Position numbers and translations under genes: made by a program. Source: Chloroflexota bacterium (GTDB lineage: Bacteria > Chloroflexota > Limnocylindria > Limnocylindrales > CSP1-4). Taken from it: 8,540 nt of DNA. The notes under the pieces are model-generated. The model saw only the letters and a program-made list of their open reading frames with translations, searched no databases and was not told the origin of the DNA. Every line of letters starts with the position of its first letter. The first letter of the stretch is position 1. The DNA lies in contig JAJYMP010000783.1 of the NCBI GenBank assembly GCA_021786915.1, positions 1 through 8,540 of the forward strand, given 5' to 3'. Shown one piece after another: positions 663 through 8,342 of the stretch.

Positions 663-696
663 GGCACCGTCCTCCGGGTGGCGCGCCAGCGGTGCC
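663..696 (+). terminator. weak stem-loop downstream of the first gene
   Basis: GGCACCG (663-669) pairs with CGGTGCC (690-696) across a 20-base loop that contains a 10-bp perfect palindrome, TGGCGCGCCA (679-688). It starts 6 bases after the TAG stop, where a terminator would be expected, but no run of T follows. In this GC-rich DNA a 7-bp stem can occur by chance, so this is only a possible terminator. Confidence 0.22.
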
Positions 697-703
697 AGCC
701 CAT

Positions 704-731
704 CAGCAAGTGTTGCGGGACTGTTGATCGG
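704..731 (+). repeat. TIR-like motif upstream of the sigma operon, inverted relative to the copy at 3749-3775
   Basis: CAGCAAGTGTTG (704-715), a 6-base gap, then TGTTGATCGG (722-731). The same two blocks occur on the minus strand at 3775-3764 and 3758-3749 (CAGCAAGTGTTG, 5-base gap, TGTTGATAGG). The two copies therefore lie in opposite orientation on either side of the sigma/anti-sigma pair. The first block also matches the core of the transposon-like ends elsewhere in the window (GGCAGCA-A/G-GTGTTG). It lies about 150 bases before the sigma factor start, so a regulatory site is an alternative. No 8-bp direct repeat flanks the pair, so it is not shown to be a mobile unit. Confidence 0.45.
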
Positions 732-882
732 CGAGGACACTGGAACGGAGCACCTCCCGGCGCGACTGGACGCCGGATCGACCCGCGCCGACGATGACGT
801 CTGACGAAGATTGAACCTTTCGTCGCGCTCGGCAGTCATGTCGGTCACGATGGACGTCATCACGGCGTGGGAGACGAGGCAC

Positions 883-1416
883 ATGGCGACCCTGGATCGC
901 GCGGCTGCCCCGGGGGAGCGTGAGGCCGCGTTCGCACGCCTGGCGGAGACGCAGCTCGACGCGGCCTATCACCTGGCCACCTTCATCCTCGTCGGCGACC
1001 GGGCCGAGGCCGAGGACGCCGTGCACGACGCGGCGCTGCGGGCCTGGGAGCACCTCGGCGAGGTCCGCGATCCGGCCCGCTTCGAGGCGTGGTTCACGCG
1101 CATCGTCGTGAACGTCTGCCGGGATCGCATCGCCGGCCGTCGCACGCGACCCGTCACGCTGGCCGACCCGGACCCTGGCGCAGCGCCCGACCACGCCGAC
1201 GCCTTCGCCCGCTCCGACGCGCTCGAGCAGGCCATGCGCTCGCTCTCAGCGGACCAGCGCATCGTGATCGGCCTGCGCTTCGTCGAGGACCGCTCGATCG
1301 AGGAGATCGCCCTGCGCACCGGCGAACGACCGGGCACGGTCAAGAGCCGGCTCCACTACGCCCTGCGCGCGCTGCGCGCCGCGCTCGAGGCGGACGCGCG
1401 GGAGGTCGTCCCATGA
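883..1416 (+). CDS. ECF-type RNA polymerase sigma-70 family factor
   Basis: A 177-residue protein, the usual size for an extracytoplasmic-function sigma factor: only regions 2 and 4 are present. Region 2 spans about residues 20-85 (LRAWEHLGEVRDPARFEAWF, then TRIVVNVCRDRIAGRR) and would bind core polymerase and the -10 element. A short acidic/proline linker follows (about 88-112). Region 4 spans about 115-168 (LSADQRIVIGLRFVEDRSIE, then EIALRTGERPGTVKSRLHYA), with the helix-turn-helix that reads the -35 element. I chose ATG 883 because GGGAGACGAGG lies just upstream and the protein then begins directly before region 2. The frame is open back to TTG 811, with ATGs at 838 and 850, but these add residues unlike the family. 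The stop TGA overlaps the next gene's ATG by 4 bases, so the two are translationally coupled. That next gene is the likely membrane-bound regulator. Its regulon cannot be told from the sequence; I saw no convincing autoregulated ECF promoter. Confidence 0.9.
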   Translation: MATLDRAAAPGEREAAFARLAETQLDAAYHLATFILVGDRAEAEDAVHDAALRAWEHLGEVRDPARFEAWFTRIVVNVCRDRIAGRRTRPVTLADPDPGAAPDHADAFARSDALEQAMRSLSADQRIVIGLRFVEDRSIEEIALRTGERPGTVKSRLHYALRALRAALEADAREVVP

Positions 1417-3710
1417 ACGACGAGCAGTTCGAGCAGCGCGTGCGCGACGCGGCCCGCCGGATCGCGGACGCCGACCGGCCCGCGCCGGGGTCGCTGCACG
1501 CCCGGGTGGCAGGCATCCCGGCCGAGCATCTCCACGCCGTGGTCGGCCGACGCTGGTTCGGTGGGGGCCTGCGCCTCGCCGGAGCGGCGCTCGCCCTCGT
1601 CATCCTCGCCGTCGCGGTCGCGCTCCTCGCCTCGACGCTCCCGCGCAACAACGCGCTCGTGCCGGGCACGTCGAGCATCCCGAGCCCCTCACCCTCTCCC
1701 ATCGCGTCGCCCGCCGCGCCCGCCTCGCGAGCGCCGGGCGCGGTCGCACTGCCCGACGGGCTGACGAACCGCGCCTGGGTCGAGATGGGTCCGACTGAGG
1801 CCGCGCCGCCCTATGCCGCCGGCATGCTCGACGACAGCGCGCACCTCGAGCTGCCGGCCAACGAGCGTCCGCTCGGGGTGAGCGGCAACCTCGTCGTGTC
1901 GCTCGTCAGCCTCGGAGCGACCGGGAAGGACGAGCTGATCGTGCGCGACGTCACCGCCGGGGCCGTCGTGTCGCGCGCCGCGGTCCCCGCCCAGGTCGTG
2001 CCGACCGCGGTCGCGATGGCGCCGGACACGCTGTATTTCCTCGTGCAATCAGGTCCCGCCCTCGCTAACCCGGCCGTCTATCGGCTCGACCTGTCCACCG
2101 GGTTCGCAACCCCATTCGCCCTGAACATGCTCGCGAGCGTCCTCGTGGCGAGTCCGAGCGGGCGCACCCTCGTCGCCTGCGGCACCCCGGGCCTGGGGGC
2201 GAGCGCGGTCACGATGATGCGTCCGCTGGCCGGCATCCCGTACGTCCAGTTCTCGGTCCAGGGCATCGCCGTCGCCACGAACGACACGACGCTCATCACG
2301 TACGGCGGCCACACGCTCTACGGCTACTCGTTTGCGACCAGGCGGCTCGCCTGGACGATCCCCGACGTCCTGTTCGACCGCGGCTATGTCACGACCGACG
2401 GGTCGAGCTTCGTCATCCAGACTGGCCTCGATCCGACTTTCACGGGCAACCAGGGGGCCGGCCTCCCGGCCGCGGCCCTGCCCTCGCGCATCGCGATCGT
2501 CAGCTTCGGCGGAGCGCTACGTGAGCTCGTCACGGCGCCCGAAGGCACGCCCGGCTACCACCTCTGGACGCAGGTCTCGAACGATCACGCCGCCGTCCTC
2601 CTCCAGCCCGGCGAGTTCCCCCAGGCGGCGTTCGAGGCCGGCCACGGCACCCTTTCGCCGACCGTGCTCGACCTCGCGACCGCGAAGCTGACACCGCACG
2701 CGTTCACGCTCACGGAGGCTGCGCCCGCTCCCACGGCGACGCCGTCCCCCTCGACGACGCCATCGTTCCCGGTGACAGGGCGTCTCGTCGGACGCACGCC
2801 ACTGCCCTCCACGGCAGGGGGCCCGCTGTGGATCACCGTGGCCGACGGCGCGCCCTGGATCACCCTCGGCGGTGACCCCCAGGGAACGGTCGAACGGATC
2901 GACCCGACGTCCGGGAAGGTCACGGAGACCGTCAAGGTTGGTTTCGCGCCCAGCGCGCTCGCCGCCTACGGGACCTCGCTGTGGGTCACCAACAGCACGG
3001 GTGCCAGCGCCCATCCGCCGGGCCCATACGTGAACACCGTCCAGCGCATTGACACCACGACGGGTCACATCCTCGCGACCGTGCCGCTCGAGCTGCCCGG
3101 CCAACTCGTCGCCGACGGGTCAGGCGCGTGGGTCGTCAGCGCCCAGCACTCCCTCGTCCACGTCTCGCCGACCGGCCAGATGCTGGGGAGCGTCGTGCTG
3201 GCGTCGGGTTCGCCCAGTCAGGATCTTCCGGTGAGCGTGGCGATCGCGGGCGGGCGCATCTGGGTCGTCCTGGCGCACGGCGGAGCTTCGGACGTCACCC
3301 TCGAGGCGATCGATCCCGCGAATCTCAAGATCGTCCTGACGACCGAGGTGGCGCAAGGCCTCGGCTGGCTGGTTGCGACGTCGAATGCTCTCTACGGGGC
3401 GCAGGTCAGCGGCACGACGACGTTCGCCTGGACGCGCATCGATCTGCAGACCGGTCGCGTGACCATGCTCGGCGACCTGCCGGTGCACCCCGCCCAGTTC
3501 GAGGGCGTCGCGGTCACCGCGGACGGGGCGTGGGTGCTCGACCCGGGCGCTCCGCCCGCGCAGACGCCGCGGGTCATCCCCTTCGATCCGATGACGGGGC
3601 GCCAGACCGGTGCCGGCGTGCAGCTGACTGGATCCTTCGGCGACTTCATGGTCGCAAGCGGGCGCGACGTCTGGACGCTCGGCAGCGAAGTCGATCACCT
3701 GCGCTTCTGA
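1413..3710 (+). CDS. membrane-anchored propeller protein, probable anti-sigma factor/sensor
   Basis: A 765-residue protein starting at ATG 1413, with GGAGG (1401-1405) 7 bases upstream and a 4-base ATGA overlap with the sigma factor. Residues 1-50 are cytosolic and charged (MNDEQFEQRVRDAARRIADA), about the size of a minimal anti-sigma domain. Residues 53-76 form one hydrophobic span, followed by a Ser/Pro-rich stalk (SIPSPSPSPIASP). The outer part has two halves joined by another Pro/Thr/Ser linker (about 436-452, TATPSPSTTPS). The first half (about 95-435) is strand-rich and irregular. The second (about 464-765) holds six roughly 45-residue repeats of the type RIDP.TG.v...v followed by a Trp-Val strand (VERIDPTSGKV, VQRIDTTTGHI, TRIDLQTGRV, PFDPMTGRQT), as in YVTN/Vgb-like propellers. 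No HxxxCxxC zinc anti-sigma motif is present. The role as cognate anti-sigma rests on operon order, overlap and topology; the propeller probably senses a ligand or the cell envelope. Confidence 0.85.
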   Translation: MNDEQFEQRVRDAARRIADADRPAPGSLHARVAGIPAEHLHAVVGRRWFGGGLRLAGAALALVILAVAVALLASTLPRNNALVPGTSSIPSPSPSPIASPAAPASRAPGAVALPDGLTNRAWVEMGPTEAAPPYAAGMLDDSAHLELPANERPLGVSGNLVVSLVSLGATGKDELIVRDVTAGAVVSRAAVPAQVVPTAVAMAPDTLYFLVQSGPALANPAVYRLDLSTGFATPFALNMLASVLVASPSGRTLVACGTPGLGASAVTMMRPLAGIPYVQFSVQGIAVATNDTTLITYGGHTLYGYSFATRRLAWTIPDVLFDRGYVTTDGSSFVIQTGLDPTFTGNQGAGLPAAALPSRIAIVSFGGALRELVTAPEGTPGYHLWTQVSNDHAAVLLQPGEFPQAAFEAGHGTLSPTVLDLATAKLTPHAFTLTEAAPAPTATPSPSTTPSFPVTGRLVGRTPLPSTAGGPLWITVADGAPWITLGGDPQGTVERIDPTSGKVTETVKVGFAPSALAAYGTSLWVTNSTGASAHPPGPYVNTVQRIDTTTGHILATVPLELPGQLVADGSGAWVVSAQHSLVHVSPTGQMLGSVVLASGSPSQDLPVSVAIAGGRIWVVLAHGGASDVTLEAIDPANLKIVLTTEVAQGLGWLVATSNALYGAQVSGTTTFAWTRIDLQTGRVTMLGDLPVHPAQFEGVAVTADGAWVLDPGAPPAQTPRVIPFDPMTGRQTGAGVQLTGSFGDFMVASGRDVWTLGSEVDHLRF

Positions 3711-3748
3711 ACAACCTCGCAGGCTGCCGCGGCAGTGTGGGCGCTCGT

Positions 3749-3784
3749 CCTATCAACATCTTCCAACACTTGCTGCCGCACTAA
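3749..3784 (-). repeat. left arm of the insertion-site palindrome, resembling a transposon right end
   Basis: Read on the minus strand from 3784: TTAGTG, then CGGCAGCAAGTGTTGG (3778-3763), then TGTTGATAGG (3758-3749). The 16-bp block matches, with one mismatch and in inverted orientation, CGGCAGCAGGTGTTGG at 8314-8329 on the far side of the transposon. It abuts the left target duplication in the same register as the transposon's real right end: six bases separate the CTGCCG core from the 8-bp TCTCGTTC. It may be half of a host palindrome or the remnant right end of a related element. It lies in the short gap after the propeller gene. Confidence 0.7.
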
Positions 3785-3792
3785 TCTCGTTC
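3785..3792. repeat. left target-site duplication, 8 bp
   Basis: TCTCGTTC immediately before the first base of the left TIR. The identical octamer lies immediately after the last base of the right TIR (8300-8307). Eight-base duplications are usual for IS256/MULE-like and several other DDE families, which agrees with the transposase inside. Confidence 0.9.
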
Positions 3793-3829
3793 AGAGACCG
3801 GCAGGACGTGTTGATTGAGTGGTGGTAAC
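3793..3829 (+). repeat. left terminal inverted repeat
   Basis: A 25-bp perfect match (3793-3817) to the reverse complement of 8275-8299, followed after 4 bases by GTGGTAAC (3822-3829), which recurs in the right end after 3 bases. The conserved inner blocks (GTGTTGATTG and GTGGTAAC) are probably the transposase binding sites, and the outer AGAGACC the cleavage end; that division is inference. Confidence 0.92.
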
Positions 3830-3848
3830 CCCGACGAGATCCCGGGCC

Positions 3849-3876
3849 TTGACCGGCCGATACGAGCCGTTACGCT
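3849..3876 (+). promoter_or_regulatory. candidate sigma-70 type promoter for the cargo membrane gene
   Basis: TTGACC (3849-3854) and TACGCT (3871-3876) are separated by 16 bases and fit a -35/-10 pair of the TTGAC...TANNNT type common in high-GC bacteria. Transcription would begin about 3883-3884, just before or at an ATG (3884), and 21 bases before the preferred ATG 3905. It lies inside the transposon, so the cargo gene would bring its own promoter. Confidence 0.45.
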
Positions 3877-3904
3877 GGCGAGGATGGACCGAGCGAGGCG
3901 GACG

Positions 3905-4810
3905 ATGAGGACCGCGGCACACTCCGACCACCGAGACTTGGCTCCTGTGCCCGTTTGGGTGCGCCCCTTGGCAGGATGGGCGGCCGCCGCCCTCGCCGCG
4001 GCGATCGTGCTGTTGGACCTGATGATGCTGTGGCCTGGCGCTTCCGGGACTGCGTATGTGCTCTCGCTGGCGGCCGGCGTTGCTTCGGATGGGCTGATCG
4101 TCGGCCTCCTCGCACTCGTGCTGCTCCGTCCGGTCGGGCTCCGCTCCGCCGACCGCGGACTCGTCCTTGGTGCGGTCGTGTTTGCCCTGGCCGTGGTCTA
4201 TCGCGTCGGCATCAACCTGCTCGCGCGGCTCGCCGCACCGAGCGAGCCCACCCTCGCGCTGCCGACCGGACCATACGTGGATCCCTTGGTCGAGTCTGGG
4301 CTCCGCGCGGTTGGAGCCTGGCTCTTGGCGGCAGGCATTGCTCAACTCGTGGGAGCCCGACGGGGCCGTTTGGCCACATGGTCAGGCCCTCAGCTCGCGG
4401 CTGCCGTCAGCGGCATATGTGTGGCCGGACTCATTCTCGCGGCTGCGGCATTCGTGGCACCGGTCACACAGAACCGCGGAGAAGTCCCCTGGGCGCTCGA
4501 GGTGCTTGCCTGGACCGTCCTTGGGGTCGGCGCGCTGACCCGGCCGTTGGTGTCGCGGACCCGCTGGCTCGTCGCGGCCGGCGCGGGTCTCCTGGTTGCG
4601 AGCTCGGCGGTCGCCGCTGTTGATCTCCTTGTCCAAGGCTGGTGGTGGGGACCGGTTCGCGCCTGGTTCCCGGCCCTACTCAACTGGCACGGCGCATACG
4701 TCTATGTCGGCGAGCTCGACTTCCTCGGGTGGGCGGCCCTCTGGCTCGGCCTGGTCGGCCTCACCCTCGCGCCTGGGCCCACTGCCCCGGTCTCCACGCC
4801 CAAGCGCTGA
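3905..4810 (+). CDS. multi-pass integral membrane protein, transposon cargo, function unknown
   Basis: About 301 residues with roughly eight hydrophobic spans. Examples are LAGWAAAALAAAIVLLDLMM near the N-terminus, GLIVGLLALVLL, GLVLGAVVFALAVVY, VGAWLLAAGIAQLVG, GICVAGLILAAAAFVA, VLAWTVLGVGALT, LLVASSAVAAVDLLV and WAALWLGLVGLTLA. The loops are short and partly basic (RPLVSRTRW), and the tail ends in PVSTPKR. I recognise no family, transport motif or catalytic residue. Start ATG 3905 has GAGG six bases upstream. ATG 3884 is an alternative that could be leaderless, because it falls at the predicted transcription start; the frame is open back to 3815, inside the left end. The gene lies wholly inside the element and converges on the exonuclease gene. 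It could be an immunity, fitness or mere passenger function; nothing in the sequence decides. Confidence 0.75.
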   Translation: MRTAAHSDHRDLAPVPVWVRPLAGWAAAALAAAIVLLDLMMLWPGASGTAYVLSLAAGVASDGLIVGLLALVLLRPVGLRSADRGLVLGAVVFALAVVYRVGINLLARLAAPSEPTLALPTGPYVDPLVESGLRAVGAWLLAAGIAQLVGARRGRLATWSGPQLAAAVSGICVAGLILAAAAFVAPVTQNRGEVPWALEVLAWTVLGVGALTRPLVSRTRWLVAAGAGLLVASSAVAAVDLLVQGWWWGPVRAWFPALLNWHGAYVYVGELDFLGWAALWLGLVGLTLAPGPTAPVSTPKR

Positions 4811-4945
4811 CCTGGCCCTCGTCCGGCCCAAGGCGCGAGGGCACGAGCGCGGTCCGCCAGACGGCTGGGTTGATCGCCCCATCCCTGTCTCCTTCGCCGT
4901 GCATGCAGGCGATGGCTCCGTCAAGGTTGCGCTCGAGTGCGACAT

Positions 4946-4978
4946 CGGGCGGGGTAGCGACCGGCGTTACCCCGCCCG
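4946..4978. terminator. strong stem-loop between convergent genes, spanning the exonuclease stop codon
   Basis: An 11-bp perfect stem: CGGGCGGGGTA (4946-4956) pairs with TACCCCGCCCG (4968-4978) across an 11-base loop. The minus-strand stop codon TAA (4969-4967) of the exonuclease gene sits at the loop-stem border. It lies between two convergent genes, so it could end transcription or stabilise mRNA 3' ends from both sides. Neither strand has a T-run after it, so classic intrinsic termination is not shown. The rest of the 4811-4966 gap shows nothing I can support. Confidence 0.45.
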
Positions 4979-6601
4979 CAGGAATCTCGGCTGGCGCGTC
5001 GGGCGCTGCGGCGTGAGGGAGTGGTGATGCTCGGTCGGAGGGTGCGTCAGTCGGGCCAGGCGAGCTCCGACCTGAGCCGCACGGATCGCGAGGCTTGACC
5101 ACGCGGGATCAGTGCTCCCGTTCCGGGCGCGCAGGACGCGCCGGCAGTCCCGAAGAGCGGCAACGAGGTCGGTGGGGCGGCCGCCTGCCGACGTGGTGAT
5201 GGCCCGAGCCTCGGCGATGTAGGGGTCGCGGCAGCCCTCCTGGCGCCACACCTGGTCCGTCAGCTGCGCCGCCGTGCCCGCCTCGCCATGCTCCCGGTAG
5301 AAAGCGTGACAGAAGCGGAGCACGGTATCGGCGAGCAAGGGCGCGTTGCAGTGCATGGCCGCGTAGCCGCGCCCCGCGCCCTTGCTCGACGCCGCGACGG
5401 TGGCCGAGCGCGTGTTCCAGAAGGCGACGACCTGGACGCGGTCCGCGCTGATCACGGAGGAGACGAGCCCCGCGCGCCACACGTCAGTGGGACATGGATC
5501 CCCGGCGCGGCAGGCCGGACACTGATCGTGTGCTCCGCAGCGTTCGATCGGGGCCAGGAGGGCCTCGAGCCAGTTGTGCAGGGCTACCGCCACGCCGCGC
5601 TGACCGCGCTGCCCGGTGAGACGCGTGAGCTGGGGCCCTTCGGCTCGCATCGCCTCGATCGTGTCGGGGAGCAACCCCAGCAGCGGCATGAGCGCGCCGA
5701 GCACGGTGGCCGCGCCTGCCTGATCGCCAGCGGCCGCGGCGTCCCGCAGGGCCGCGAGCAGGAGCGTCCGCAGGTGCCGCGGCGGAGCGGCGGCGCTCCG
5801 ACCCGCCAACCCGTCGCAGCGGAGCGAGGCGCACTCGCCGATCCAAGTCCGCCATTGCGCGAACTGCCCTGGGGTCGGCTGCTCGGGCAGGATCTGCCCG
5901 TGGGTCTCGATGTGTGAGGGTGTGACCACGGGTGCCGCAATCTTCGGAGCCCGGGACCGCTCGAGCTGACGTGCCGCCACCATCGAACCCGTGGTCCCGC
6001 CATTGAGCTCGGTGAGCAGCGCGTCGAGGTCGGTGTAGCCGGCCTCCTCGGCTCGCCGCAGGAGCTCGCAGGCGGACTCCGCGGTGGCCGATGCGTCGGC
6101 GAGCGCGTCGTGCGCGGCGTGGTTCTCGATCCCGAGTGTCTCGAGCAGTCGCGTGAGCTTGTGAGAGCGAAGCGACACGCCGGCGAGGCGCACGAGCGGT
6201 CCGGCGGTGTCGAGGATGGGGAGCTCGGGCAGCGGCTCGCCCTTGACCCGCGCGATCTCGTTGCGCAGCACGGGCACGTCGAAACCCGCCCAGTGGGCGG
6301 CCAGCACCACCCGCTCGCGGTTCCGGGCCTCGAGGAGCCGCGCGAACTCCGGGAGCACCTCCGCGAACGTCGGCTCGTCGGCGAGGTGCTCGTCGGTGAG
6401 GTGGTGGATCGTGGTGGTCTTCCGATCTACGGGCACCTCCGGGTTGATGAGCCAGCCGAAACGCTGCTTGATTCCTCCGGCCCGACAGATGGCCACGCCG
6501 AGCGCCACGATGCGATGGGCGTTGCCGGGGGCCACGCACGTCTCGAGGTCGAGCACCACGAGGCGCAGGTTCGCGGGCGGGCCCCACAGCGCGCCGCTCA
6601 C
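4967..6601 (-). CDS. DnaQ-like DEDDh 3'-5' exonuclease with a long unknown C-terminal domain
   Basis: A 544-residue protein starting at GTG 6601, which overlaps the transposase stop by 4 bases (GTGA). GAGGAG lies 11 bases upstream, inside the transposase gene. The N-terminal 175 residues carry a full DEDDh active site: Exo I VVLDLETC (D18, E20), Exo II AAHWAGFDVPVL (D108), and Exo III NHAAHDALADASAT (H164, D169). Such domains remove nucleotides from DNA or RNA 3' ends using two metal ions. Residues 245-544 match no family I recognise. They contain a Cys4 cluster (C355-x5-C361-x2-C364-x5-C370, around RCGAHDQCPACRAGDPCP), which may bind zinc, then a region with further Cys and Trp residues. It is far longer than proofreading epsilon subunits or oligoribonuclease (about 180-250 residues). 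Its place in the transposase operon, inside the TIRs, suggests a role in transposition, end processing or overcoming host defences; this is inference. Confidence 0.88.
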   Translation of the reverse strand: MSGALWGPPANLRLVVLDLETCVAPGNAHRIVALGVAICRAGGIKQRFGWLINPEVPVDRKTTTIHHLTDEHLADEPTFAEVLPEFARLLEARNRERVVLAAHWAGFDVPVLRNEIARVKGEPLPELPILDTAGPLVRLAGVSLRSHKLTRLLETLGIENHAAHDALADASATAESACELLRRAEEAGYTDLDALLTELNGGTTGSMVAARQLERSRAPKIAAPVVTPSHIETHGQILPEQPTPGQFAQWRTWIGECASLRCDGLAGRSAAAPPRHLRTLLLAALRDAAAAGDQAGAATVLGALMPLLGLLPDTIEAMRAEGPQLTRLTGQRGQRGVAVALHNWLEALLAPIERCGAHDQCPACRAGDPCPTDVWRAGLVSSVISADRVQVVAFWNTRSATVAASSKGAGRGYAAMHCNAPLLADTVLRFCHAFYREHGEAGTAAQLTDQVWRQEGCRDPYIAEARAITTSAGGRPTDLVAALRDCRRVLRARNGSTDPAWSSLAIRAAQVGARLARLTHPPTEHHHSLTPQRPTRQPRFLRAG

Positions 6602-8226
6602 AGAAGGCCGCGCTCCTCGGCGATCGCGTTCATGAGCGCCTCGTCACGCAGTGAGCTGTATGTGCCGCGGCGCGGCTGCGGGTCGGCGATCGCGCGCAGC
6701 GGCACGGTCCAGCCGCCCCACGGCAGCTCGTCGGCCTCAATGAGGGCGGCCACCGCGTTGAGGTCAGTGAAGGCGCCCTCGGAGCGGCACACGGCGAGGT
6801 CGAAGAGGTTGTTCGTGCGCTCGATGTTGGCGAACTGGTATTGGCGCTGCGCGAGGAGCGGATCAATCCAGGTGTGGTTGAGGCTCTCGATGCCGCCCGT
6901 GCTCATGCCGAGGCGCGGATCGGCGAGCAGGGCCGGCAGCGCGGCGGCCATCCGGTCCTCGTAGTTGGCACGGCTGCGGCGCAGGTCGTCGAGCCTGACG
7001 GCCCGGCTCTGGATCGCCAGTGCCCCCAGCGTGTCCCACCAGGTGTGCCAGGCGGCCACGCTCTCCATTGCCTTGCCGTCGCGCGCGAGCTGCGCGAGGT
7101 GCGCCCGAAAGGCGTCGCGGTAGGGCCCGCGGAGGGCGTCCTCGAGCGCATTGTTCTCGAGCGCCTGTCCGATGTGCCAGATGCTCGGCACGAACAGCGG
7201 GCCGGGCGTTCCGAAGTGGCGGCTGACGCCGCTGATGATGCTCGTCGAGGCGTCCGAGAGGATCATGTCGGGCACGTAGCCCATCTCGGCAAAGGCGAGC
7301 CGCCAGGCCGTGCCGTTGAGGGCCGGCATCGCGCGGACGAGCCGCAGCTTGGTGGCGCCGGGCACGGCGGGATCGGTCCAGTCGAGTTCGGCGAGCACCA
7401 GGATGGCGTAGCCGCCGCTCTTCTTGGCGTTGCCCGCGGCGTCCCGCCCGTAGATGGGGAGTTCGTCCAGAATCCACACGAGTGGCTGGCCGGCCTCGCG
7501 CATCGAGGCTGCCCGCTGACGAAGGCGCGCCTCGACAGGCGCCCACACGACCGGCGCGAACGCCTCGACGAGCCCGGCGCCGATCTGCCAGAAGCGGCCC
7601 ATGTTCTTGCTCGCCGGCGAGCGGCGCTTGCGCTTCCGCGTGCTCCACCGCCGTCGCGGGCGCGGTGGCTTCGCCGGTGGCCGGCGGCGGCCCGGGCGGG
7701 TCGGCAGGCCCGCGGCGGTGAGCGCGCCGAGCCCTGTCTTCGCATAGCTCAGCCCGAGCGCGGCATCGGACAGGCCGCGGGCCACCACGCGTGCGGGGAG
7801 GCGGTGACGGCGCGCGACAGACCGCTCGCCGCGGTGGAAGCCCCGCAGCTCGAGGCACTCGCGGCAGCTCTCCCCAGCATGGACGTGCGCGCGGGGGAGT
7901 GGGGGCGTGAAGGTGTGCGGCTTGCTGCCGTCGGCCGGCGCGCAGCGGTATCGCTGCCGAGGGCGACCCGCGCGGGCATACACGCCGCAGCGCACGACGT
8001 GCGAGCCTGGATGCTTCGCGCAGGCAGGCGCCCCGCGGTGCCCTCGCCGGCGCGGTCCCGAGGCGAGCAGGACGGTGAAACGGTGAGGGTCGCCGACGGC
8101 CGGCGAGCAGCGGTAGCTCCGGTAGGTCCCTGAAGGGCGGTGGAACGTCCCCCAGGCGACGACATGAGATCCGCGATGGCGCGGGTCAAGGCAGCGAGCT
8201 GCCGGTGCTGATCTGGGTCGAGGCAA
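6598..8226 (-). CDS. MULE/IS256-type DDE transposase with N-terminal zinc-ribbon-like modules
   Basis: About 542 residues from TTG 8226, which has AGAAGGGAAG seven bases upstream. The frame is open to TTG 8277 inside the right TIR, but starting there would leave almost no element-borne DNA for a promoter. Numbering here is from 8226. The N-terminus has two similar modules, C12...GSHVV...SYRC40 and C69...GSHVVRC80...YRC95, then H116-x4-C121-x2-C124, suggesting tandem zinc-binding DNA-recognition units. A helix-turn-helix-like stretch follows (about 147-173), then a very basic linker (178-208). The catalytic core shows D254 in VWILDELPIYG, D325 in DMILSDASTSI, the MULE-like sequence LFVPSIWHIGQAL with H351, and E447 in STGGIESLNHTW, giving D-71-D-122-E. 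It cuts and joins the element's TIRs. The exact IS family is not certain. Confidence 0.87.
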   Translation of the reverse strand: MPRPRSAPAARCLDPRHRGSHVVAWGTFHRPSGTYRSYRCSPAVGDPHRFTVLLASGPRRRGHRGAPACAKHPGSHVVRCGVYARAGRPRQRYRCAPADGSKPHTFTPPLPRAHVHAGESCRECLELRGFHRGERSVARRHRLPARVVARGLSDAALGLSYAKTGLGALTAAGLPTRPGRRRPPAKPPRPRRRWSTRKRKRRSPASKNMGRFWQIGAGLVEAFAPVVWAPVEARLRQRAASMREAGQPLVWILDELPIYGRDAAGNAKKSGGYAILVLAELDWTDPAVPGATKLRLVRAMPALNGTAWRLAFAEMGYVPDMILSDASTSIISGVSRHFGTPGPLFVPSIWHIGQALENNALEDALRGPYRDAFRAHLAQLARDGKAMESVAAWHTWWDTLGALAIQSRAVRLDDLRRSRANYEDRMAAALPALLADPRLGMSTGGIESLNHTWIDPLLAQRQYQFANIERTNNLFDLAVCRSEGAFTDLNAVAALIEADELPWGGWTVPLRAIADPQPRRGTYSSLRDEALMNAIAEERGLL

Positions 8227-8263
8227 CGCCTGACTTCCCTTCTGGGACGCCAGGGACGCGTAC

Positions 8264-8299
8264 GTTACCACTTCCAATCAACACGTCCTGCCGGTCTCT
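8264..8299 (-). repeat. right terminal inverted repeat
   Basis: Bases 8275-8299 are the perfect 25-bp inverted copy of the left end. GTTACCAC (8264-8271) is the inverted copy of the inner GTGGTAAC block, with one base less between the two parts. An alternative TTG start for the transposase (8277) lies inside it, so transposase bound here could also affect its own expression. Confidence 0.92.
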
Positions 8300-8307
8300 T
8301 CTCGTTC
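8300..8307. repeat. right target-site duplication, 8 bp
   Basis: TCTCGTTC, identical to 3785-3792, directly after the last base of the right TIR. Directly after it another AGAGACCGGCAG begins, so this octamer also borders the next end-like repeat. Confidence 0.9.
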
Positions 8308-8342
8308 AGAGACCGGCAGCAGGTGTTGGTAGTTGGTGGTAA
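8308..8342 (+). repeat. second transposon-like left end, or right arm of the insertion-site palindrome
   Basis: AGAGACCGGCAG is followed by CAGGTGTTGG and TGGTGGTAA. Compared with the transposon's left end (3793-3829), the first 12 bases are identical, GTGTTG is identical at the same offset, and TGGTGGTAA recurs with a one-base shift. Its 16-base core (8314-8329) is also the inverted partner of 3763-3778. It is therefore either the left end of a second, related element continuing to the right, or one arm of the host palindrome into which the transposon inserted. Confidence 0.75.

What the first reader, a model, noticed from the sequence alone, without database searches (positions are those of the whole stretch)
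4967..8226. Transposase co-translated with a DEDDh exonuclease inside one transposon
The transposase stop and exonuclease start overlap as GTGA, and both lie between perfect TIRs and TSDs, so the exonuclease is a bona fide transposon gene. Its active site is complete (D18, E20, D108, H164, D169). Transposon accessory genes are usually resolvases, target selectors, TnpB-like nucleases or cargo; a proofreading-type exonuclease coupled to a MULE-like transposase is not an arrangement I know. Possible roles are trimming ends after excision, biasing donor-site repair, processing gap-fill intermediates, or degrading host nucleic acids.
Basis: partly seen in the sequence, partly recalled or inferred. 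Interest (0 to 1): 0.78.

Follow-up and report, generated by a model that had tools for sequence, protein, structure and literature searches.

The report
Bacterial transposon built around an exonuclease
This is a bacterial jumping gene whose transposase is encoded back-to-back with a nucleic-acid-trimming enzyme, and because almost every relative found keeps the same pair, the trimmer is probably a working part of the jumping machine rather than baggage.

Summary
A 4,507-bp element (window 3793-8299) has perfect 25-bp terminal inverted repeats and an exact 8-bp target duplication; its transposase and DEDDh exonuclease genes overlap as GTGA. The pairing recurs: 15 of 16 related transposase loci (14 genomes) have the same exonuclease next door; the exception is an N-truncated transposase. 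A stop/start overlap is available in 15 of 16 pairs, window included. Six elements have exact 8-bp duplications. Catalytic residues are invariant in 43 of 43 aligned exonucleases, and distances of the two proteins co-vary (r 0.956). Matches spanning the exonuclease's own C-terminal half were seen only at transposase loci. Cargo on its far side varies. So the exonuclease is a core gene. The transposase has no significant Pfam, NCBIfam or PDB-sequence match; its fold is closest to the IS256-family ISCth4. Most likely role, inferred: trimming 3' ends during transposition, as Cas1-Cas2/DEDDh does. Eukaryotic KolobokD and Dada transposons also pair a DDE transposase with a DnaQ-type exonuclease; my searches listed no bacterial case. 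New variant of a known kind.

The parts
3793..8299 (.). complete transposon, 4,507 bp
   Evidence: perfect inverted ends plus 8-bp duplication
3785..3792 (.). target-site duplication, left copy TCTCGTTC
8300..8307 (.). target-site duplication, right copy TCTCGTTC
3793..3817 (+). terminal inverted repeat, cargo-side end (25 bp perfect)
8275..8299 (-). terminal inverted repeat, transposase-side end (25 bp perfect)
6598..8226 (-). DDE transposase, TTG start inferred (frame open to 8277); candidate catalytic D271, D342, E464 and H368, numbered from 8277
4967..6601 (-). DEDDh exonuclease with a conserved Cys/His-rich helical C-terminal half
6598..6601 (-). 4-base stop/start overlap GTGA, translational-coupling geometry
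4967..5926 (-). C-terminal half of the exonuclease with HxxxH, Cx4C and Cx5CxxCx5C pattern
   Evidence: no PDB sequence match at E 1
3905..4810 (+). passenger gene, convergent to the exonuclease; hydrophobic and membrane-protein-like by eye (no transmembrane prediction was run); no Pfam or PADLOC match
4946..4978 (.). hairpin (14-bp arms, 93% complementary) at the 3' end of the exonuclease gene; not listed by the terminator scan
   Evidence: inverted repeat I23

Best explanation
It is a bacterial transposon family whose core is a two-gene transposition module: a DDE transposase with an ISCth4/IS256-like fold, and an overlapping gene for a DEDDh exonuclease with its own Cys/His-rich helical half. 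The elements carry varied cargo between the exonuclease and the far inverted repeat and make an 8-bp target duplication. Shown by sequence: the module, its conservation, the overlap, the ends and duplications. Inferred: the exonuclease binds the transposase or its DNA complex through the C-terminal half and trims 3' DNA ends (donor-flank nucleotides beyond the transposon's 3' end, or 3' ends of an intermediate) up to a boundary protected by the transposase, so that an exact 3'-OH is available for strand transfer. That would make it a 'trimmer-transposase', working like the Cas1-Cas2/DEDDh trimmer-integrase. I put the core-component part at about 0.9 and the 3'-end-trimming step at about 0.4.
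For: 15 of 16 fetched transposase loci (14 genomes; L010, L012 and L015 share one) have the exonuclease immediately downstream. A stop/start overlap is available in 15 of 16 pairs, window included: RTGA in 13, TGATG in 2 (start sites inferred). Six elements with exact 8-bp duplications when the end is set 6 nt before CGGC/CGCC: window, L001, L004, L005, L013, L014. Distances of the two proteins co-vary over 16 pairs, some truncated: r 0.956, 0 of 5000 permutations. Catalytic residues invariant in 43 of 43 rows. dN/dS 0.17 (transposase, 618 codons) and 0.29 (exonuclease, 406 codons, partial) between two copies in one genome. In 14 transposase-bearing genomes, 16 of 30 exonuclease rows reach beyond model position 215; they lie at 15 loci, all paired with the transposase, and the other 14 rows stop by 215. 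In 345 genomes of one class, 3 had such a match, all at transposase loci. Cargo differs while the pair stays. Precedent for the chemistry: Cas1-Cas2/DEDDh trims 3' overhangs before integration (PMC10284694, abstract, Main and Discussion read); the Dada authors suggested 3'-end processing (PMC3706591, passages).
Against: No biochemical data. DNA against RNA substrate cannot be told from sequence; the fold matches include both kinds (TREX1, Pol III epsilon, but also ERI1-type enzymes, RNase T). In IS256-type copy-out/paste-in as I recall it, flanks stay on 5' ends, which a 3'-5' exonuclease could not remove directly, so trimming needs a cut outside the end that is not shown. L002 lacks a usual start codon at the overlap (ATAA). 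A distant transposase relative in G014 (L091; E 3.9e-12, 2.9e-16) has no exonuclease in its 3.4-kb locus. L011, an N-truncated transposase on a 3.36-kb contig, has none either. Loci came from two peptide patterns, so distant members may be missed; one search scored at most 4 candidates per genome and did not list all matches. Four proteins with the C-terminal half show no exonuclease domain at all.
Confidence: 0.55

Rival explanations
1. The exonuclease acts on the donor side: after excision it resects the broken donor ends or degrades left-over transposon circles and intermediates, biasing repair towards copying from the sister or suppressing abortive products.
For: Same core-gene evidence. 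The KolobokD authors proposed that its DEDDh enzyme degrades DNA intermediates from the 3' end (PMC9587614, passages). TREX-type folds are among the matches.
Against: No donor sites or footprints were examined. 3'-end resection of the donor would not obviously help the element.
Confidence: 0.2
2. The exonuclease is an RNase or regulator: it removes RNA (antisense or host guide RNA) or tunes expression, or counters a host defence, and so is needed for spread rather than for the chemistry.
For: DEDDh enzymes include RNases (RNase T and ERI1-type enzymes); one homologue, P0119, also carries Pfam PF01424 (the name R3H is recalled).
Against: Conserved overlap with, and co-variation with, the transposase suggest a physical or stoichiometric partner. 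PADLOC hits of the window protein cover only the exonuclease half.
Confidence: 0.15
3. The exonuclease is a chance passenger, a host gene picked up by one element.
For: Transposons do carry host genes, and this family has varied cargo.
Against: 15 of 16 loci have it directly downstream, 15 of 16 pairs with an available stop/start overlap; matches over its C-terminal half not seen elsewhere in the genomes searched.
Confidence: 0.02

Closest known systems
KolobokD transposons of animals (PMC9587614, passages read)
   Same: DDE transposase of the group related to MuDR, P and hAT, in a transposon that also encodes a DEDDh (DnaQ) exonuclease; a role was proposed in the passages read.
   Different: [quoted passage not shown] TTAA duplications (recalled) against 8 bp of varied sequence here. 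Gene overlap and cargo of KolobokD were not looked up.
Dada transposons (PMC3706591, passages read)
   Same: DDE transposase with a DnaQ-like 3'-5' exonuclease; authors suggest processing of cleaved 3' ends.
   Different: Exonuclease is DEDDy, lies inside the transposase and is reported for two hosts; Dada targets small-RNA genes.
Cas1-Cas2/DEDDh trimmer-integrase (PMC10284694, abstract, Main and Discussion read)
   Same: DNA integration enzyme working with a DEDDh exonuclease that trims 3' ends to size.
   Different: CRISPR adaptation; exonuclease fused to Cas2; Cas1 is not a DDE transposase (recalled).
IS256 family / ISCth4 (PMC7780238, passages read)
   Different: [quoted passage not shown] no significant sequence-profile match; Ser at the C/D position here; Cys/His-rich N-terminal half here.
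Tn7-like TnsA/TnsB (recalled)
   Same: Transposase plus a dedicated second nuclease in one element.
   Different: TnsA is a PD-(D/E)XK endonuclease, not a DEDDh exonuclease; other Tn7-type proteins were not looked for here.

Membership tests
DEDDh (DnaQ-like) exonucleases | five catalytic residues D, E, D, H, D in an RNase H-like exonuclease fold | tested here: met
   [not shown]
IS256 / Mutator transposases | sequence-profile membership (Transposase_mut PF00872) | tested here: not met
   0 hits for the window protein; 1 of 42 members at E 0.21; hhalign probability 1.7% against 8 IS256-type proteins
IS256 / Mutator transposases | D-D-E RNase H-like core with all-helical insertion before E | tested here: met
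   [not shown]
IS256 / Mutator transposases | C/DxxH motif | tested here: inconclusive
   His invariant 42/42, but Ser at the C/D position in 90% or more of rows
IS256 / Mutator transposases | copy-out/paste-in with a circular intermediate | not testable with these tools
   needs experiment
ISL3 transposases | sequence-profile membership (PF01610) | tested here: not met
   no Pfam hit; hhalign probability 7.6% against 8 ISL3-type proteins
Kolobok (KolobokD) | TTAA target duplication (recalled) | tested here: not met
   six different 8-bp duplications, none containing TTAA
Dada | exonuclease domain inserted within the transposase, DEDDy type | tested here: not met
   separate overlapping gene with the DEDDh His
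Tn7-like | TnsA-type PD-(D/E)XK endonuclease as the second nuclease | tested here: not met
   the second gene is RNase_T/DEDDh

The most novel reading that the evidence does not exclude
The first bacterial 'trimmer-transposase': a DDE transposase that depends on a dedicated DEDDh exonuclease to create its exact 3' ends, so that transposition is an integrase-plus-trimmer reaction as in CRISPR adaptation, and eukaryotic KolobokD and Dada reached the same solution.
Probability: 0.35. Interest if true: 0.85.

Novelty: new variant of a known kind. Interest (0 to 1): 0.72.

Why it matters
Exonucleases in DDE transposons were noted in a few eukaryotic families and their role proposed but, in the passages I read, not tested. 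A compact bacterial version with one overlapping gene pair, clear ends and clear duplications would make that question testable. It would also link transposition to the exonuclease trimming known from CRISPR adaptation, and it adds a transposase family without significant Pfam or NCBIfam match that moves varied cargo, including type III restriction-modification genes.

Tried and rejected
Chance passenger: rejected by linkage, overlap and co-variation.

Palindromic target preference: the window and L005 targets are strongly palindromic, but six targets together are not clearly so (44 of 120 positions, null 35.1, sd 5.1, P 0.052); not claimed.

Membership in IS256 or ISL3 by sequence: not significant (a first attempt, used wrong reading frames and is discarded). 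PDB by sequence: best matches of the transposase profile were E 0.015 (a ribose transport protein) and 0.33; none for the exonuclease C-terminal half at E 1. The fold-search rows for the exonuclease cover its first 210 residues, so nothing is said about the fold of the C-terminal half; for the transposase they cover mainly 232-509. Foldseek alone gave no transposase match at E 0.001 or better.

Plasmid and phage records: no transposase match; viral contigs: none. Phylum-wide samples of 400, 396 and 296 genomes gave 1, 4 and 2 genomes with the transposase, all already known. Searches list many of the same genomes, so they are largely one sample; at most 3 or 4 candidates per genome were scored. 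The promoter and terminator scan gave nothing above chance.

Ends: L006, L007 and L016 gave no right end above chance and L003, L010 and L015 have no sequence downstream; L009 and L011 gave none. L002, L008 and L012 have matching ends but no clean 8-bp duplication. In L004 the direct repeat is 12 bp, so the 8-bp register there is my choice.

Six of 37 proteins with the C-terminal half have no precomputed RNase_T. P0129 keeps part of it and P0132 begins inside an L013-like sequence; the other four (P0134, P0140, P0141, P0144) show none and may be fragments, decayed copies or real exceptions.

Alignments: A1 uses the window plus 41 of 70 hits, A2 the window plus 42 of 57; the other hits, mainly short or redundant, were left out.

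Literature: (open-licence PMC only) showed no bacterial transposase-exonuclease element in the rows listed; one search matched 1,029 papers and listed 15, searches listed 10 of 13 and 5 of 6. Subscription papers, preprints and ISfinder were not searched.

Full report
Observation. The window holds a complete transposon at 3793-8299. Its ends are a perfect 25-bp inverted repeat and it is flanked by the 8-bp direct repeat TCTCGTTC. Inside, on the minus strand, a transposase (6598-8226, TTG start inferred) overlaps a DEDDh exonuclease (4967-6601) by four bases, GTGA. A third frame (3905-4810, plus strand) is hydrophobic by eye and has no Pfam or PADLOC match. The finding's coordinates cover only the two overlapping genes. 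A partial transposase identical to this one is recorded from a Chloroflexi metagenome-assembled genome (P0001); no genome is held for the window.

Recurrence. A scan of one genome per species returned 16 loci encoding relatives of the transposase, in 14 genomes. Record titles name Chloroflexi, Actinomycetes and other actinobacterial groups, one Acidobacteria and one Saccharibacteria. The last two titles may mislead: the 'phylum of G003' sample lists the same genomes as the 'phylum of G004' sample, and G006 falls in the class of G005. So at least two phyla are involved. Of the 16 loci, 15 carry the exonuclease family directly downstream. The one without, L011, is a transposase matched only from about residue 170 on, on a 3.36-kb contig. 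In the 14 genomes, chosen because they hold the transposase, 30 exonuclease rows were found: 16 rows at 15 loci reach into the C-terminal half and all 15 are the transposase loci; the other 14 rows stop by model position 215. In 345 genomes of the class of G005, three had a match reaching the C-terminal half, all at transposase loci; not all weaker matches were listed. In the protein database, 31 of 37 hits to the C-terminal half carry RNase_T; of the other six, one keeps part of it, one begins inside a known copy and four show none. At least eight longest-contig lengths are shared between the transposase and exonuclease hit lists, which fits linkage but is weak evidence.

Overlap and co-evolution. 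Of 16 pairs (15 relatives and the window), a start codon is available in the overlap RTGA in 13 and TGATG in two; L002 has ATAA at the same place without a usual start. Pairwise distances of the two proteins correlate at r 0.956 (0 of 5000 permutations; some sequences are truncated). Two copies in one genome, L010 and L015, show dN/dS 0.17 and 0.29, so both genes are under constraint.

Ends and cargo. Six elements have exact 8-bp duplications with the end starting six bases before CGGC (CGCC in L001): the window (4,507 bp), L001 (3,823), L004 (4,583; a 12-bp repeat, register chosen), L005 (4,176), L013 (9,161) and L014 (8,658). L002, L008 and L012 have matching ends but no clean duplication. 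The space between exonuclease and far end holds different genes: a TPR protein (L004); an rve integrase-core protein and a DUF4232 protein (L002); dehydrogenase, TetR and DUF6326 proteins (L008); a type III methyltransferase and restriction enzyme (L013); a ResIII-type helicase and a RAMA-domain protein (L014). Some themes recur: ResIII-type proteins in L013 and L014, DUF4232 in L002 and, below its cut-off, in L013. L001 has no frame of 110 aa or more there. Cargo varies; the pair does not.

Mechanism. Shown: a conserved, overlapping gene pair with intact active-site residues within bounded elements. Inferred: the exonuclease works with the transposase on DNA. The most economical role is 3'-end trimming up to a transposase-protected boundary, as shown for Cas1-Cas2/DEDDh (PMC10284694; abstract, Main and Discussion read) and as suggested for Dada (PMC3706591, passages). 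A donor-clearing or intermediate-degrading role, as proposed for KolobokD (PMC9587614, passages), is the main rival. A difficulty is that IS256-type chemistry, as I recall it, leaves flanks on 5' ends (PMC7780238 was read in passages only), so trimming needs a prior cut outside the end.

Known or new. Pairing a DDE transposase with a DnaQ-type exonuclease is on record for eukaryotic KolobokD and Dada. My searches of open-licence papers listed no bacterial case; ISfinder, preprints and closed papers were not searched. I rate it a new variant of a known kind.

Limits. The loci came from two peptide patterns. The element looks rare: 1 of 400, 4 of 396 and 2 of 296 genomes, the last two samples largely the same, with at most 3-4 candidates per genome scored and none new. 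A distant transposase relative without exonuclease exists in G014 (L091), so the exonuclease marks this family rather than every relative. No function was measured.

Noticed in passing
window 3735-3784 and 8308-8342: Sequences resembling this family's ends lie directly outside both target duplications (14/20 and 18/20 identical to the element's end), so the element sits in an 8-bp gap between two outward-facing related ends, as if it had inserted beside older copies or into an end-to-end junction.
   Followed up: partly
window 696-3784: A possible second, decayed element: end-like sequences near 704 and 3784 enclose an ECF sigma factor gene and a large frame with weak Kelch and DUF6923 matches below cut-off, but no transposase was seen; no duplication of 6-10 bp was found.
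   Followed up: partly
L013 11306-15527; L014 13103-16364: Two relatives of 9.2 and 8.7 kb carry type III restriction-modification-type genes inside exact ends and duplications, so the family can carry defence genes.
   Followed up: partly
L091 1456-2709: A 418-aa frame resembling the Cys/His-rich N-terminal half of the transposase, with a weak C-terminal match and no exonuclease within the 3.4-kb locus; one further weak relative among 296 genomes.
   Followed up: partly
window 4967-5926: The exonuclease's Cys/His-rich helical C-terminal half has no PDB sequence match and lies outside the Pfam matches; 31 of 37 database proteins with it carry RNase_T, and four show no exonuclease domain.
   Followed up: partly
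G012:C3:97711-97729 and G007:C246:23368-23386: End-pattern matches on contigs other than those of the transposase loci in these genomes: possible solitary or non-autonomous copies.
   Followed up: no
L005 11884: A second end-like sequence lies inside the element about 180 bp from its far end.
   Followed up: no
A1 alignment, rows P0009, P0024, P0027: Some transposases carry long Cys-rich insertions in the N-terminal half.
   Followed up: no
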